Assembly (NCBI GenBank): GCA_027002405.1
Contig: JALWZT010000340.1
Span: forward strand, 1-33,817
Source: Anaerolineae bacterium
GTDB taxonomy: Bacteria; Chloroflexota; Anaerolineae; J102
DNA: 33,817 nucleotides
Reading direction: 5' to 3'
Shown here piece after piece: positions 9,776 through 28,074 of this stretch. The notes beneath the pieces are model-generated. The model had not been told where the DNA came from. It saw only the letters and a list, made by a program, of their open reading frames with translations, and did not search any database. Within the stretch, counting starts at the first letter, position 1. Each line of letters starts with the position of its first letter. The translations under genes and the position numbers were made by a program.

Positions 9776-10570
9776 AGGGGGAGGACAGTGATTAGTAATC
9801 AGTAATCAGTTATCAGTTATCAGTAATCAGTTATCAGTTGACTCTGCGTCCTCTGCGTTCTCTGCGGTGAGTGACCTTTCTACAGGGGAGTCAGGGATCA
9901 GTCATCCAGTGTTCAGTAGCAACTCCCGTGGCCAGCCCGCAGGGGGCGTCAAAGACCTTGAAGGTCTGGGAGACCCTTCAAGGTCTGACCGCGTTGGCCC
10001 CGCGGATGGCGATGCGAGGGCCAGCCGTCTGCGCCAGGGGATAATTCCCCCGGCCAGAAACAGCGCCCCTGCGGGGCTAGCCGGATTCATCCGGCGCCGT
10101 TTTATAGCCCGGCGACTTCATCGCCGGGCGGGCGTGGCAGACGCCACTTCGCTCGGCTAAACCACGCCAAATGTCTGCTTTGTAAATAGGATTCGGATCA
10201 GGATTAGGATTAAGATCGCCAGATCCACGTTGGGCGAGTCGGCAAAGGTTCGTATTGCGTATTCCGTATTCCGTCCAGTCGTTACGCAATACGCAATACG
10301 GAATACGAGTCACGCCGCCCTGGCCGCGAGGCGTTTTCCTTGGTATCGACGAACTGCCGTTCGTGGTGACTGCTTTGTAAATAGGATTCGGATCAGGATT
10401 AGGATTAAGATCGCCAGACCCACGTTGAGCGAGGCGGCAAGGGGCGTGATGCGTGAAACGTGAAACGTGAGCCCCTTACGCATCACGCATTACGCATCCC
10501 GGGCTCGGCTTCCCGCGCCAACCTGGCCGCGAGACGTTTTCATCCGTATCGGCGAACTGCCGTTCGTGGC
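9776..10570. repeat. Repeat island between ddl and murB
   Basis: No gene seen. Heptamer array (9786-9839); CTCTGCGTCCTCTGCG block with a TCAGTCATCCAGTGTTCAGT end (9840-9920); an AGACCTTGAAGGTCT palindrome pair (9953-9986); a REP-like hairpin block (10057-10175); then two tandem copies, 195 bases apart, of a composite unit that begins TGCTTTGTAAATAGG at 10176 and at 10371. Each unit contains a GGATTA array, a GTTGGGCGAG linker, a long palindrome (10251-10308 and 10444-10498), a CGCGAGGCGTTTTC linker and an inverted CCGATACCGAGG block. The second unit runs 31 bases into the murB frame. Confidence 0.85.
10057..10175 (+). repeat. REP-like multi-hairpin block, copy 1
   Basis: Four consecutive hairpins: GCCCC-tgc-GGGGC, GCCGGAT-tc-ATCCGGC, CCCGGCGA-cttca-TCGCCGGG, and a longer GGCGTGG to CCACGCC pair, ending AAATGTCTGCT. 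Nearly identical copies lie at 11772-11898 and 19634-19762, and inverted at 33390-33488. Confidence 0.85.
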
Positions 10571-11553
10571 GCCCGTTCCGTACGTGGGTCTGGCAGAGGG
10601 GGGTCCTGAGGCCACTGGCCCACCAGGAGGATTTCCGGTTCCAGCAGGATGTGAAAATGACGCCACACCTCGCGACGGGCCAGGATCATGAGATCAAGGA
10701 CGTCGTGGGCCCGGGCCTGGCCTCGGTTGATGATGAAATTGGCGTGTTTTTGGCTAATGCAGGCCTGGCCAATGCAATGGCCTTTGAGCCCAACCGCGTC
10801 GATGAGCCGACCTGCGTAGTCGCCCGGCGGGTTTTTGAAAATAGAGCCCGCGCTGCGGTCGATGGGTTGGGTGCGCCGCCGGTAGGTCATGGCCTGACGG
10901 GCCGCTTCCTGAGCCCGCCCCGCCCTATCGGGCTCCAGGCGCAGGGTCACATCCAGCAAAACGGGGGGCGTGCCGGGCCGCGCGGCCAGGGGTTTGAGCC
11001 GACTGAAGCGATAGGCAAAGGCCATGGCTTCCGGGCCCCAGCGCGTGATCCGGCCCTGGTGCCACACCCGCGCGCTGACGAAAATCGAAGCGATATCGTG
11101 ACCATGGGCACCCGCGTTGCCGACCACAGCCCCCCCGACCGTGCCCGGCACACTCACGGCCCAACTGAGCCCGGCCAGGCCCCGCTGCAGGGCCTCTCGT
11201 GCCAGGCCCGCCAGGGGCACGCCTCCCGCGGCGGTCACGGTCACTGGTCCCCGGTAGGGAGGATCCGGCCAGTGCACCTCGCGGCAGCGGTGTTGGATCA
11301 CCACCCCGCGGACTCCCGCATCGCTGATGAGCAGGTTGGTCCCCCCGGCCAGGAGCCAGTAAGGCACCCGGGCCTGATGCAGCGCGTCCAACGCGGCTTG
11401 CAGGTGGTCAAGCTGCGTCAGGGTGACCCAAAAATCGGCCGGGCCCCCGATGCGGAAGCTGGTGTAAGGGGCCAGGGGCACCCGTTGGCGCAGGCCCCCT
11501 TGGCTCAAGGCATCCAGTCGGGCCAGGAGCTGGGTGGGAGGTGGGGAGGGCAT
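10540..11553 (-). CDS. murB: UDP-N-acetylenolpyruvoylglucosamine reductase
   Basis: FAD- and NADPH-dependent MurB makes UDP-MurNAc, the second committed step of peptidoglycan synthesis. The 337-residue protein has the FAD-binding segments [14 protein letters not shown] (about 28-41), [18 protein letters not shown] and [19 protein letters not shown], then the C-terminal substrate domain with [10 protein letters not shown] containing the catalytic Ser, and ends the family-conserved part at LEPEILLVG. The last about 20 residues exceed the usual end, and the final ten (PRTAVRRYG and flanking residue) plus TGA are translated from the inverted CCGATACCGAGG repeat module. The GGATTA array ends 3 bases before the ATG, so no ribosome site is present. 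The gene stands alone between two islands. Confidence 0.96.
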
Positions 11554-11771
11554 TGGGGATTAGGATTAGGATTAGGATTAGGATTAGGATTGGCAGGCCG
11601 AGGGTAGGCGCGAGTGGGAGTGGGAGTGGGAGTAATCAGTAATCAGTTATCAGTTATCAGTTATCAGTTATCAGTTGACTCTGCGTTCTCTGCGTTCTCT
11701 GCGGTAAGTAGCCTTTCCGTAGGGGGGTCAGGGATCAGTCATCCAGTGTTCAGTGTTCAGTAGCATCAAGG

Positions 11772-11898
11772 CTAGAAACAGCGCCCCTGCGGGACCAGCC
11801 GGAATTATCCGGCGCCGTTCTATAGCCCGGCGACTTCATCGCCGGGCGGGCGTGGTGGACGCTACTTCGCTCGGCTAAACCACGCCAAATGTCTGCTA
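11772..11898 (+). repeat. REP-like multi-hairpin block, copy 2
   Basis: Same series of hairpins as at 10057-10175, with small changes in the first two (GGGACCAGCC, GGAATTATCC) and the perfect CCCGGCGA/TCGCCGGG hairpin conserved. It ends with AAATGTCTGCTATG. Confidence 0.85.
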
Positions 11899-12223
11899 TG
11901 AAATAGAACCTGTTATGAACTTATCGCCAATTTCACGCGATTTTGTGGATGGCGGGCGTTTCAATTCGCCACGGATGATGCTGATGCGACGGATCGACAC
12001 GGATTTTTTGGGAAAAAACATGGTATCTGTTTGAAAAATCCGCGAAAATCTGCTTTATCCGCGTTATCCGCGGCCAATTCCAACCTCCGATGCGGCGATC
12101 CTGAGCTTTGAGGGAAGCAAAGTGCATAACAGTCCAACGGCGGGCTCGCCCGCGCCGATACCGAGGAAAATGGGAACGCAGATTTGCGCTGATGCTCCGC
12201 AACGCAGATTTTCGCAGATATTC

Positions 12224-12335
12224 GTCATGCTGAGCGACCGGAGGGAGCGAAGCATCTAGCGAGCGAAGCGAGCGCCATGCCGTGGTCTTTTGCGCTTCGC
12301 TAGATTCCTCGGTCGCTGCGCTCCCTCGGAATGAC
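12224..12335. repeat. 112-base imperfect inverted repeat (MITE-like)
   Basis: The ends are GTCATGCTGAGCGACCGGAG on the left and, read on the other strand, GTCATTCCGAGGGAGCGCAG on the right; the arms continue to CTAGCG(A) near the centre. The arms are similar but shuffled, so the element can fold into a long imperfect hairpin. No coding capacity. Confidence 0.7.
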
Positions 12336-12467
12336 GTCGCGGGGCTCTACTGATTACTGATAACTGATCACTGATTACTCTATTTACAAAGCAGTCGCCA
12401 CGAGCGGCGGCTCACTGATACCGAGGGAAACGCCTCGCGGCCAAGTTGGCGCGGGAAGCCGAGTTCG

Positions 12468-12713
12468 TGATGCGTAATACGTAATGCGTAATGAGCTCAC
12501 GTTTCACGTTTCACGCATCACGCCCGTTGTCGTCTCGCTCAACGTCGGCCTGGCGATCCTTCCGCAGCCGACGATCATGCTATTTTCAAAGCAGTCATCA
12601 CGAACGGCAGTTCGCCGATACGAATGAAAACGCCTCGCGGCCAGGGCGGCGTGACTCGTATTCCGTATTGCGTATTGCGTAACGACTGGACGGAATACGG
12701 AATACGCAATACG
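12468..12713. repeat. Two long palindromes in the murB-murC island
   Basis: 12468-12524 has arms of the GCGTAATACG / TTTCACGCATCACGC type; 12657-12713 has arms GTATTCCGTATTGCGTATTGCG and its complement around a GTAACGACTGGACGG centre. The second is the exact inverse of copies at 10251-10308 and 19831-19889. Each lies between a CCTCGCGGCCA linker and a CGCTCAACGT or CGCCCAACGT linker. Confidence 0.8.
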
Positions 12714-12777
12714 AACCTTTGCCGACTCGCCCAACGTCGGCCTGGCGATTCCTCAGCAACCAGCGATCATTCTATTT

Positions 12778-14175
12778 TCATAGCAGGATCTCGGCCAGGC
12801 GGGTGGCCGAGCCCGCACTGAGGATGATGACCAGGCTGTTGGGGCCCAGGCGGGGCATCAGGTATTGGGCAATGGCCTCCAGGGAAGGGATGGCTCGGGC
12901 ATCTTCATGATGGGTGGCCGCGGCCACCAGCTCCGGGGTGATGTGAGGGTCCTGAGGTTCCCGGGCCGCGTAGATTTCGGTGATGATGACATGATCCGCC
13001 GCGCTGAACGCACCATGGAATTGATCCAAAAACGTACGGGTACGGCTGTAGGTGTGGGGCTGGTAGATGGCCCAGATCTCTCGCTGGGGATAGGCCGTGC
13101 GCGCGGCCTGCAGGGTGTGGCGCACTTCGGTGGGATGGTGGGCGTAGTCATCGATGATTATCGCGCCCCGGACTTCCCCCTTCCATTCAAAACGGCGGGC
13201 CGCGCCCTGATAGGTCATCAGATGAGGGATGGCTTCCTCCAGCGAAAGCCCGGCTTCGCGCACGGCCAGCAACGCGGCCATGCTGTTGAGGATGTTGTGC
13301 AAACCGTGCAGCCGCAATTGCACGGGGTAATCATGCCCCTGGATGTGGAGGCGGTAGCGGGCTCCCTGGGGCCCCATCTCGATATCCTCGGCCCGGGCAT
13401 AGGCGCCATGAAAAGCGCCGTAGCTGAGGCCATGCTCCAGGCGTTGTTCCCGCTCCCAGCGGCGCAGGGTGGGGTCGTCCCGGTAGTAGAGCACACGGCC
13501 CTGAGCGCGGACCTGTTGGAGCAAGCGCAGAAACGCGTCCTCATAAGCCTCGGGCGTGGGGAAAAGGTCGGGGTGATCCCAATCCAGGTTGGTCAGGACC
13601 AGACGCCAGGGCTTGAGTCCCAGGAACATGTAATCGTACTCATCCGCTTCGATGACGAACAGGGGTTCCCGGCCCGCTTCGCTGAAGCCCAGGCCCGGGA
13701 TTTCGCTGCCGATGATGTAGCCCGGGCGACGCCCTGCCTGGGTGAGGATGTGCGCAATGAGCGCGGTGGTGGTGGTTTTGCCATGGGTCCCTGCCACGGC
13801 CAGGACCTCGCGAGCCTCCAGCAGGGGCCCCAGCAGGTCTTTGCGCTTGACCACGGGCAGGCCCCAGGCCTGGGCCTGTTGCACCTCCGGGTTGGAGGGG
13901 GGAACGGCCGAGGAGATCAGGACCAGATCGGGCCGTGAAGGGGGATCGGGGCTAAGGAGATGCTCGGGCCGATGCCCCTGGAAAATCCGGGCGCCCAGGG
14001 CCTCCAGGGCCTGGGTGCGGGTGTTGCGCTCGCGATCGCTGCCGCTGATTTGAAATCCCATCTGCGCCAGGACCCGGGCGATGGGGGCCAGGCCCGTGCC
14101 GCCCGCTCCCACCAGATGGATGCGATGCTGGCGACGTTGGTCAGGAAGGAGGGTGAAGAGGCTCTGCCAGGGCAT
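12778..14175 (-). CDS. murC: UDP-N-acetylmuramate-L-alanine ligase
   Basis: ATP-dependent cytosolic ligase that adds L-Ala to UDP-MurNAc, the first amino acid of the stem peptide. The 465-residue protein shows the UDP-binding N-terminus (HLVGAGGTGLAPIARVL, about 19-35), the P-loop AGTHGKTTTTALIAH near residue 125, the DEYDYMFL segment, the YAHHPTEV motif and HTYSRT in the C-terminal domain. Length is normal. The TGA overlaps the boundary of a repeat module (CTGCTATGAAAATAG, compare CTGCTTTGTAAATAG elsewhere). The ATG is 3 bases after the stop of the upstream membrane-protein gene, without Shine-Dalgarno, so it is probably translationally coupled. Confidence 0.97.
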   Translation of the reverse strand: MPWQSLFTLLPDQRRQHRIHLVGAGGTGLAPIARVLAQMGFQISGSDRERNTRTQALEALGARIFQGHRPEHLLSPDPPSRPDLVLISSAVPPSNPEVQQAQAWGLPVVKRKDLLGPLLEAREVLAVAGTHGKTTTTALIAHILTQAGRRPGYIIGSEIPGLGFSEAGREPLFVIEADEYDYMFLGLKPWRLVLTNLDWDHPDLFPTPEAYEDAFLRLLQQVRAQGRVLYYRDDPTLRRWEREQRLEHGLSYGAFHGAYARAEDIEMGPQGARYRLHIQGHDYPVQLRLHGLHNILNSMAALLAVREAGLSLEEAIPHLMTYQGAARRFEWKGEVRGAIIIDDYAHHPTEVRHTLQAARTAYPQREIWAIYQPHTYSRTRTFLDQFHGAFSAADHVIITEIYAAREPQDPHITPELVAAATHHEDARAIPSLEAIAQYLMPRLGPNSLVIILSAGSATRLAEILL

Positions 14176-26526: not shown

Positions 26527-27459
26527 ATGATCCTACGACATCTCCTCATCGCCCTTTCCCATAGTAGCACCATGCAGCGCATGACGGTGGATTTTCCCCC
26601 GGCCCGTCGTGTGGCGCGGCGTTTTGTGGCCGGAGAAAGCCGAGAAGACGCGCTGGCCGTGATCCGCACCCTGAACCAGGCCGGGGTTTTGGTGACGTTG
26701 GATTACCTGGGGGAGCATGTGACGGATCGGGCGCTGGCCCGAGCCAGTGTGGGAGAGTACAAGGCCATGTTGCGGGCCATTGGTGCCGAGAACTTGCAAA
26801 GCGGGGTTTCGCTGAAGTTATCGGCCATGGGGGTGCACATTGATGAAGCGTTTTGTGTGGACAATGTGCGGGAGGTGGTGGCCCAGGCCCGGGAAGTAGG
26901 GCGCTTTGTGCGGATCGATATGGAGGAGTCCAGTTTGGTGGATACCACGTTGCGCATTTACCGGCGCCTACGGCAGGAATTTGATAACGTGGGCGTGGTG
27001 CTGCAGGCCTATTTGCACCGCACCCGGGGGGATTTGGAGGCGTTGATCCAGGAAGGGATCGCGGACGTGCGCCTGGTGAAGGGCGCGTACGATGAACCGC
27101 CGGACATCGCGTGGCATGATCGGGCCAAGATACAACAGGAGCTTATCGCGTTGTGCGAGATGATGCTCTCGCCCGAGGCGCGGGGCCACGGCGCGCGGCT
27201 GGCGTTGGGTTCCCATGATGACGTGGTTTACAACCGGGTTATCGCGCTGGCCCGGGCCCAAGGGGTCCCCCCTGATCAATGGGAGATTCAGTTTTTGTAT
27301 GGGATCCGCCGAGATGAGTTGCAGCGCCTGGTGGCTGCCGGGCATCGCATGCGTGTGTATGTGCCCTATGGGGAATCCTGGTACCCCTACTTTATGCGGC
27401 GTTTGGCGGAGCGCCCCGCCAACTTGCTTTTCTTCCTGCGCGCGATGGCAGGCAAATAA
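26527..27459 (+). CDS. Proline dehydrogenase
   Basis: FAD-dependent, membrane-associated enzyme that oxidises proline to pyrroline-5-carboxylate and feeds electrons to the quinone pool. The 310-residue monofunctional protein has the N-terminal helix LRHLLIALSHSS, the RRFVAGESREDAL segment, GVSLKLSAMG, VRIDMEESSLVD and the barrel motifs VRLVKGAYDEP, GSHDD, EIQFLYGIRRDELQRL and YVPYGESWYPYFMRRLAERPAN, which hold FAD and substrate-binding residues (the last two Arg are the typical carboxylate-binding pair). Length matches bacterial single-domain PRODH. No P5C dehydrogenase gene is adjacent. The ATG at 26527 fits the family start. The gene ends 1 base before an intrinsic terminator. Confidence 0.93.
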   Translation: MILRHLLIALSHSSTMQRMTVDFPPARRVARRFVAGESREDALAVIRTLNQAGVLVTLDYLGEHVTDRALARASVGEYKAMLRAIGAENLQSGVSLKLSAMGVHIDEAFCVDNVREVVAQAREVGRFVRIDMEESSLVDTTLRIYRRLRQEFDNVGVVLQAYLHRTRGDLEALIQEGIADVRLVKGAYDEPPDIAWHDRAKIQQELIALCEMMLSPEARGHGARLALGSHDDVVYNRVIALARAQGVPPDQWEIQFLYGIRRDELQRLVAAGHRMRVYVPYGESWYPYFMRRLAERPANLLFFLRAMAGK

Positions 27460-27460
27460 A

Positions 27461-27489
27461 AAAGGGCGCCACTTAATTCGGCGCCCTTT
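27461..27489. terminator. Bidirectional intrinsic terminator
   Basis: Ten-base stem AAAGGGCGCC / GGCGCCCTTT with the loop ACTTAATTC. On the plus strand it follows the proline dehydrogenase stop with only a short T run; on the minus strand it is followed by TTTTTTATTT, a proper U tract, so it terminates minus-strand transcripts best. Confidence 0.85.
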
Positions 27490-27642
27490 CGAGAGAAGCG
27501 ACTGAGCACATTAGCGCATTGCTGAGATCCGTCCCCCGACAAATCTCGTGTGGTGCTCTTGTCGGCCGCCACTGGCGGCAAACTTCAGGACTCAGGATAA
27601 AGTAGGTTCCCCCTGCCTACTTTAACCTTCGGATGTCCTGAC
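27461..27642 (-). ncRNA. Candidate structured small RNA ending at the terminator
   Basis: Read on the minus strand from about 27642 to 27461 (about 180 bases). Helices seen: an outer TCAGGAC (27641-27635) with GTCCTGA (27591-27585) enclosing AAAGTAGG / CCTACTTT (27623-27616 with 27606-27599); GCCGCC-agt-GGCGGC (27579-27565); CCGACAA / TTGTCGG (27565-27559 with 27542-27536); and a possible pseudoknot by GAGCAC (27558-27553) with GTGCTC (27509-27504), enclosing GAGAT / ATCTC (27547-27543 with 27528-27524). A TATATT (27650-27645) could be the -10. The terminator has a U6 tract. No gene follows on that strand for 1.3 kb, so it is a stand-alone RNA rather than a riboswitch. I do not recognise the family; the length is like 6S RNA but no rod with central bubble is visible. 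Confidence 0.55.
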
Positions 27643-27750
27643 GTAATATAAGACGGAACTTTTGGCAAAAAGTTACGGGTGGGAAAGGGCGAATTTGAAA
27701 TTTTTTTCATATTCCAGATGAATGGGACAATTCTATCACTTCCAAGTCCT

Positions 27751-27793
27751 TGTGACATTTGTCACTGCCTGCGACGGCGGCTTTGATTATAAT
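27751..27793 (+). promoter_or_regulatory. CRP/FNR-type operator and -10 upstream of the anion permease
   Basis: Palindrome GTGAC-ATTT-GTCAC (27752-27765; with flanks TGTGACATTTGTCACT, close to the CRP pattern TGTGA-N6-TCACA), 22 bases, then TATAAT (27788-27793). With a start at about 27800 the palindrome centre is at -41.5, the class II activator position. The -35 hexamer (CTGCCT) is poor, as expected for an activated promoter. The same arrangement exists before the ATPase gene. Confidence 0.7.
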
Positions 27794-27808
27794 AAAAATA
27801 ACATCATG

Positions 27809-27995
27809 GTAACTATACACCTATACCCTTCCATAGCAAGGTGAAAACCACGAAGACACGAAGGCACCAAGGCACGAAGGAGAAAATAAAAGGTTCTCTT
27901 CGTGTCTTCGCCTCTCCCCCCGTGTGCGGGGGGAGCCGGAGGGGGGCCTTCGAGCCTTCGTGGCAAAGCGTTGGGTGGGATACCTGTATAGTTAC
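27809..27995. mobile_element. MITE-like element between a promoter and the permease gene
   Basis: The ends are an inverted repeat: GTAACTATACA followed by CCTATACCC on the left (27809-27828) and GGGATACCTGTATAGTTAC on the right (27977-27995). Eleven outer bases match perfectly and the rest imperfectly. Inside are CACGAAGACACGAAGG and its inverse and a CTCCCCCC-gtgtgc-GGGGGGAG hairpin (27914-27935). No transposase and no clear target duplication. It lengthens the permease 5' leader to about 275 bases. Confidence 0.5.
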
Positions 27996-28074
27996 GAAAT
28001 TTTTTCCGTGAACCCCTTATTTTTCTCTGTGTCCTCCGTATCTCCGTCTTGAAAAACCTTTTTACAATGGAGCC

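What the first reader, a model, noticed from the sequence alone, without database searches (positions are those of the whole stretch)
27461..27650. Unassigned structured small RNA with a possible pseudoknot, convergent to proline dehydrogenase
The minus strand holds four local helices, a pair of mutually knotted helices (GAGCAC/GTGCTC against CCGACAA/TTGTCGG) and a strong intrinsic terminator with U6, about 180 bases after a TATATT -10-like box. The base composition and lack of repeat modules differ from the islands. No open reading frame follows, so a stand-alone regulatory RNA is more likely than a riboswitch. I do not recognise it as 6S, tmRNA, SRP or RNase P RNA.
Basis: partly seen in the sequence, partly recalled or inferred. 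Interest (0 to 1): 0.75.

Follow-up and report, generated by a model that had tools for sequence, protein, structure and literature searches.

The report
Stress-sigma-factor small RNA in Chloroflexota
This stretch encodes a real, previously uncatalogued small RNA, found in one order of Chloroflexota bacteria, that appears to be switched on by an envelope-stress sigma factor and probably silences cell-envelope genes by pairing its two five-G loops with a CCCCC tract next to their ribosome-binding sites.

Summary
In detail: window 27458-27645 (minus strand) encodes a single-copy, ~188-nt, terminator-ended structured RNA (fold z = -5.8), absent from Rfam. Homologues exist in 17 of 20 genomes of the same order (Caldilineae/Anaerolineae, Chloroflexota) and in none of 376 other genomes of the class. 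Four helices covary; the proposed pseudoknot does not, and nested pairing replaces it. The TATATT box is not the conserved promoter. All eight same-genus copies start from CCCGTAAC-N16-CGTC, an ECF-sigma-type promoter that also precedes an ECF sigma gene (followed by a DUF5667 membrane protein) and secreted subtilases. The RNA displays two conserved G5 hairpin loops (AAGGGGGAA and YGGGGG). The complement, UUCCCCC, is rare in ribosome-binding sites (1 of 535 genes sampled) but recurs in orthologues of envelope genes: an MG2 lipoprotein (5-10 nt matches to the RNA in the eight species compared; 10 nt in this genome), a LysM-YkuD L,D-transpeptidase and membrane RmuC. Hfq and CsrA are not detected in the order. 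Best reading: an ECF/sigma-E-like envelope-stress sRNA, the Chloroflexota counterpart of MicA/RybB/MicL and FoxI/FoxJ, with a G-rich rather than C-rich seed. RNA and promoter are well supported; targets and direction of regulation are inferred.

The parts
27652..27679 (-). ECF-sigma-type promoter CCCGTAAC-N16-CGTC (-35 about 27679-27672, -10 27655-27652)
   Evidence: Identical in all 8 same-genus homologues with spacing exactly 16; variants with the same spacing in the other genera; shared with an ECF sigma gene
27458..27645 (-). small RNA gene, about 188 nt; 5' end inferred from the -10 element, 3' end at the U run
   Evidence: Fold z -5.79; homologues and covariation
27583..27642 (-). hairpin P1 with the first G5 loop
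   Evidence: Covariance model R2; 35 cells with compensatory change versus 11.1 in shuffles, 14 sequences; found in 17 of 20 order genomes, 0 of 376 others
27604..27613 (-). predicted seed GGGGGAACCU in the P1 loop and its 3' strand, reverse complement of AGGUUCCCCC
   Evidence: 10-nt perfect match to the SD-to-AUG stretch of the MG2 lipoprotein mRNA in this genome and in G007
27565..27579 (-). hairpin P2 (GCCGCC-AGU-GGCGGC)
   Evidence: Covarying in the genus (helix 3)
27499..27564 (-). domain P3: stem CGAC..GAGCAC / GUGCUC.GUCG enclosing P4
   Evidence: 98.8% of cells paired, one compensatory pair; stem also present in other genera with different sequence
27524..27547 (-). hairpin P4 GAGAUUUGU-CGGGGG-ACGGAUCUC with the second G5 loop
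   Evidence: Invariant in the genus; stem sequence changes but the G5 loop is kept in 8 other genomes of the order
27458..27489 (-). intrinsic terminator, stem AAAGGGCGCC/GGCGCCCUUU then U6; overlaps the stop codon of the convergent proline dehydrogenase
   Evidence: Sequence; terminator hairpin kept with covarying pairs in 8 homologues

Best explanation
It is a trans-acting small regulatory RNA of an ECF-sigma (envelope or extracellular stress) regulon, working like the sigma-E-dependent sRNAs of Proteobacteria and Fusobacteriota. When the ECF sigma factor is released from its membrane partner (probably the DUF5667 protein encoded next to it), RNA polymerase transcribes the sigma gene, secreted proteases and this ~188-nt RNA from CCCGTAAC-N16-CGTC promoters. 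The RNA folds into P1, P2, a P3/P4 domain and a terminator, and presents two G5 loops (AAGGGGGAA and YGGGGG). These pair with UUCCCCC tracts flanking the Shine-Dalgarno sequence of envelope mRNAs (MG2 lipoprotein, LysM-L,D-transpeptidase, membrane RmuC; in other genera the leader of the sigma gene itself) and block ribosome binding, so new envelope synthesis falls during stress. Shown: the structured RNA, its conservation and limits, the promoter and its sharing with the ECF gene, the two loops, and conserved complementary tracts in several envelope RBSs. Inferred: transcription in vivo, control by this particular ECF factor, base pairing, and repression as the direction.
For: Covarying structure. 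Order-specific single-copy conservation: 17 of 20 genomes, 0 of 376 others. Invariant promoter with exact N16 spacing; 29 CCCGTAAC-N16-CGTC sites in 9 genus genomes versus 8 for the reversed control, 7 of them directly upstream of orthologous ECF sigma genes, others upstream of signal-peptide subtilases. The sigma gene's own promoter has the same form across most of the order. Promoter-to-P1-loop distance 36-42 nt in 16 of 17 homologues, and a second G5 loop in 16 of 17 with changing stems. TTCCCCC occurs in the 30 nt before the start of only 1 of 535 sampled genes of G007, and that gene is the LysM-YkuD protein whose orthologues in G001, G003, G004, G006 and G008 also carry it. The lipoprotein RBS keeps a C-tract in all 9 genus species while the rest of its leader diverges; exact matches to each species' own RNA are 6-10 nt in 7 of the 8 species tested and 5-6 nt in G003. 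Motif-bearing gene families are enriched for N-terminal signal or TM segments, 18 of 40 versus 55 of 306, p = 2.5e-4. No Hfq and no CsrA above the cut-off, as in F. nucleatum, which lacks Hfq and ProQ yet has sigma-E sRNAs with homopolymer seeds (PMC11005410).
Against: No transcript data. The seed is short and G/C-rich; in G001 and G006 the lipoprotein match is 6-7 nt and in G003 5-6 nt. G014, where neither the RNA nor the ECF orthologue was found (81% complete assembly), still has GGAGGUUCCCCCAUG before a LysM protein and a lipoprotein, so the tract may have another role. ECF leaders in the window's own genus lack the C5 tract. Outside the genus the RNA's -35 often differs (GTATC, GTGTC, GCGAC) from that of the sigma gene, so control by the same ECF is less certain there. 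The 40 motif families come partly from hits I chose by RBS appearance, and the truncated list means the target set is not exhaustive. Composition-matched permutations show no genome-wide enrichment of TTCCCCC in RBS regions.
Confidence: 0.6

Rival explanations
1. A stand-alone structured RNA of the ECF regulon whose G5 loops bind a protein (a sponge or a ribonucleoprotein), not mRNAs; the C-tract in some RBSs is unrelated.
For: The loops are more conserved than needed for a short seed, and P4 is perfectly conserved over 24 nt in the genus. Two similar loops in one RNA resemble protein-titrating RNAs. G014 has the RBS motif without a detected RNA.
Against: The classic partner CsrA is not detected above the cut-off in any of 20 genomes, and no partner gene is linked. 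The 10-nt match from Shine-Dalgarno to start codon in G000 and G007 and the envelope bias of motif genes are not explained.
Confidence: 0.2
2. The loop AAGGGGGAA mimics a Shine-Dalgarno sequence and pairs with the anti-SD end of 16S rRNA (CCUCCUU), acting on ribosomes under stress.
For: AAGGGGG can form 7 pairs with CCUCCUU, one of them G-U (sequence reasoning).
Against: A true SD (AAGGAGG) would pair better, yet GGGGG is kept without exception in all 17 copies, as expected for a CCCCC partner.
Confidence: 0.07
3. A different ECF factor, or several, drives the RNA; the shared promoter form is only the common ECF consensus.
For: These genomes hold up to 6 related ECF genes, and AAC-N16-CGTC is common among ECF promoters (general knowledge).
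Against: In the genus the match extends to CCCGTAACYTTT, beyond the usual core, and the recurrent other site is upstream of this ECF gene.
Confidence: 0.2

Closest known systems
FoxI and FoxJ, sigma-E-dependent sRNAs of Fusobacterium nucleatum (PMC11005410)
   Same: Transcribed with the sigma gene from an ECF promoter, target envelope protein mRNAs, homopolymer seed (in a predicted hairpin loop in FoxJ), no Hfq in the organism
   Different: Their seed is a C-stretch, here it is G5 in two loops; unrelated sequence and phylum; here only predicted
MicA, RybB and MicL of Escherichia coli (PMC12249550 and references therein)
   Same: Noncoding arm of an envelope-stress ECF sigma factor; MicL represses the major lipoprotein Lpp and here too a lipoprotein is the best predicted target
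   Different: Those are Hfq-dependent (own knowledge); no sequence or structural relation; no match to any Rfam family
C-rich-loop sRNAs of low-GC bacteria (the class described in PMC11005410)
   Same: A homopolymer loop positioned against ribosome-binding sites
   Different: Mirror image: G-rich loop against a C-tract placed beside the SD rather than against the G-rich SD itself

Membership tests
ECF/sigma-E-dependent envelope-stress sRNA (functional class) | Transcribed from a promoter of an envelope-stress ECF sigma factor | tested here: inconclusive
   By sequence only: CCCGTAAC-N16-CGTC in 8 of 8, shared with an ECF sigma gene; not tested biochemically, and the stress sensed is unknown
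ECF/sigma-E-dependent envelope-stress sRNA (functional class) | Short noncoding transcript ended by an intrinsic terminator | tested here: met
   By sequence: terminator at 27489-27458 kept in the genus; transcript itself not observed
ECF/sigma-E-dependent envelope-stress sRNA (functional class) | Base pairs with RBS regions of envelope-protein mRNAs | tested here: inconclusive
   Conserved complementarity and envelope enrichment, but no binding or expression data and G014 is a counter-example
ECF/sigma-E-dependent envelope-stress sRNA (functional class) | Hfq dependence (Proteobacterial members only) | tested here: not met
   No Hfq in 20 order genomes; FoxI and FoxJ also lack it
Any Rfam 15 family (6S, tmRNA, SRP, RNase P, riboswitches) | Covariance-model match at the gathering score | tested here: not met
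   0 matches in the window; only chance-level matches at E up to 10
CsrB/RsmZ-type CsrA sponge | Presence of CsrA in the organism | tested here: not met
   0 of 20 genomes above the cut-off
Riboswitch or cis-regulatory leader | Co-directional gene downstream | tested here: not met
   Terminator followed by a convergent proline dehydrogenase in the window and L040, and by a convergent DinB-like gene then proline dehydrogenase in L029

The most novel reading that the evidence does not exclude
A complete sigma-E-like regulatory circuit with a noncoding arm evolved in Chloroflexota without Hfq or CsrA: an autoregulated ECF factor makes an sRNA whose twin G5 loops recognise a dedicated UUCCCCC mark beside the Shine-Dalgarno sequence of envelope genes and, in other genera of the order, of the sigma mRNA itself (negative feedback).
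Probability: 0.4. Interest if true: 0.82.

Novelty: new variant of a known kind. Interest (0 to 1): 0.7.

Why it matters
My literature searches found no described sigma-dependent sRNA for Chloroflexota. If right, the stress-sigma-plus-sRNA design known from Proteobacteria and Fusobacteriota would extend to a third, distant phylum, with the seed chemistry reversed (G-rich loops reading C-tracts). It gives a concrete promoter, RNA, seed and target list that could be tested directly.

Tried and rejected
Pseudoknot CCGACAA/TTGTCGG: no compensation. Rfam families: none, including a permissive search. CsrA sponge: no CsrA. Repeat-derived sequence: single copy in the genome. A genome-wide excess of TTCCCCC over its permutations in RBS regions was not seen, so a large regulon is not claimed. 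RNA/ECF co-occurrence in the order (16 both, 1 and 1 single, 2 neither; p = 0.046) is weak because of incomplete assemblies. The literature searches found no description of this RNA (open-access PMC papers only).

Full report
OBSERVATION. The minus strand of 27461-27650 folds at -83.2 kcal/mol against a shuffle mean of -59.2 (z -5.79, 0 of 200 shuffles). It ends in a GC-rich hairpin and U6 run (27489-27458) that overlaps the stop codon of a convergent proline dehydrogenase. It is single copy in its genome and matches no Rfam family, even permissively.

CONSERVATION. BLAST found it in 7 of 8 same-genus genomes. A covariance model of the core (R1) added six further genomes of the order, and a model of hairpin P1 (R2) raised the total to 17 of 20 order genomes, with none among 376 other genomes of the class. 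Named copies are Chloroflexota MAGs labelled Anaerolineae, Caldilineae or Caldilineales. In other genomes it often lies downstream of a DUF5656 membrane protein gene that sits next to a CHAT gene, and convergent to proline dehydrogenase.

STRUCTURE. Eight same-genus sequences give 93.2% standard pairs, 15 pairs with compensatory changes and 31 such cells (shuffles 11.2; 0 of 500 as high). P1 alone over 14 sequences gives 35 such cells versus 11.1. Two features are kept when everything else changes: the P1 loop [A/C]AGGGGGAA closed by G-C, and a second hairpin with a G5 loop inside P3. Its stem reads GGUGU/ACACC, GGAGU/ACUCC, GGGUG/CACCC or GACGUU/AACGUC in different genera. G009 keeps only P1.

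PROMOTER AND REGULON. All eight genus copies have CCCGTAAC-N16-CGTC upstream, the form of an ECF-sigma promoter (general knowledge). The TATATT box is not conserved. The same string occurs 29 times in nine genus genomes versus 8 for the reversed control. Besides the RNA, the recurrent site lies directly before an ECF sigma gene (Pfam Sigma70_r2 and r4_2), whose next gene encodes a protein with a single predicted TM segment and a DUF5667 domain; other sites precede secreted S8 proteases and a CBM-like exported protein. Orthologues of this ECF gene occur in 17 of 20 order genomes, mostly with CCCGTAAC/CCGTAGC-like, N16, CGTCTTGAC promoters. In other genera the RNA promoter keeps N16 (N17 in one) and CGTC (AGTC in one) but its -35 varies. 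The inference that this ECF factor drives the RNA is therefore firm in the genus and probable elsewhere.

TARGETS. Neither Hfq nor CsrA above the cut-off was found in the order. The complement of both loops is [U/G]UCCCCC. In an unbiased 753-kb sample of G007 only 1 of 535 called genes has TTCCCCC in the 30 nt before its start. That gene is a LysM-YkuD L,D-transpeptidase, and its orthologues in G001, G003, G004, G006 and G008 also carry UUCCCCC next to the SD. Independently, a motif search led to an MG2-domain lipoprotein: every one of nine genus genomes has a C-tract in the RBS (for example UUCCCCCGGAGGUUCCCCC-AUG in G007, GACGAGGUUCCCCC-AUG in this genome), while the leader around it has diverged. 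AGGUUCCCCC is the exact complement of GGGGGAACCU in the RNA of G000 and G007; G003 is the weakest species with 5-6 nt. Further recurring families are membrane-anchored RmuC (G001, G007, G008) and, outside the genus, a second lipoprotein (G010, G014), a FtsW-like membrane protein (G011), CHAT (G009, G015) and the ECF leader itself (UUCCCCC-AGACGAGG in several genera). Motif-bearing families are enriched in N-terminal hydrophobic segments, 18 of 40 versus 55 of 306, p = 2.5e-4 (the weaker any-TM test gives p = 0.035). Hits were fetched on RBS appearance before their proteins were read, but the set is partly hand-chosen.

INTERPRETATION. The combination of an ECF promoter shared with the sigma gene, a short terminated structured RNA with exposed homopolymer loops, and complementary tracts at envelope-gene RBSs is the design of sigma-E-dependent sRNAs. 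FoxI and FoxJ of F. nucleatum, which lacks Hfq and ProQ, are the nearest published parallel and use C-stretches (PMC11005410). Here the seed is G-rich. No homology to any known sRNA is claimed.

LIMITS. There is no expression data. Motif RBSs also occur in G014, where the RNA was not found; own-genus ECF leaders lack the tract; the target list was truncated; gene calling was simple; and a genome-wide excess of the motif was not seen. A structured RNA gene is therefore rated near-certain, the regulon likely, and the target mechanism a better-than-even inference.

Noticed in passing
window 9786-10582 and 11546-12786: Gene-poor islands made of direct and inverted copies of 70-175 nt modules plus 7-nt (AGTTATC) and 6-nt (GGATTA) tandem repeats; parts of the two islands are inverted copies of each other (arms up to 95% complementary), flanking the murB-like gene.
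   Followed up: partly
window 27690-28060: Between the RNA promoter and the CitMHS-type transporter lies sequence without a long ORF, with short CACGAAGG repeats, where other genomes have a DUF5656 membrane gene; this genome seems to have lost that neighbour.
   Followed up: no
L029:1402-4023, L040:3941-6420: Conserved divergent pair upstream of the RNA: a CHAT-domain protein and a multi-TM DUF5656 protein; in G009 and G015 a CHAT-like gene itself has the GGAG-UUCCCCC-AUG type RBS.
   Followed up: partly
L023-L028, L141, L143, L144 (about 15-35 nt upstream of the -35): Outside the genus a conserved box CTTAAANTTTN-CGCGC precedes the RNA's promoter; it may be an UP element or an activator site.
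   Followed up: no
L228, L235, L238, L241, L244 (G017): Five copies of a near-identical leader (GAGCCGGTGAGCAGGAGATTCCCCCATG type) before small MDRND... ORFs: a repeated gene or element family.
   Followed up: no
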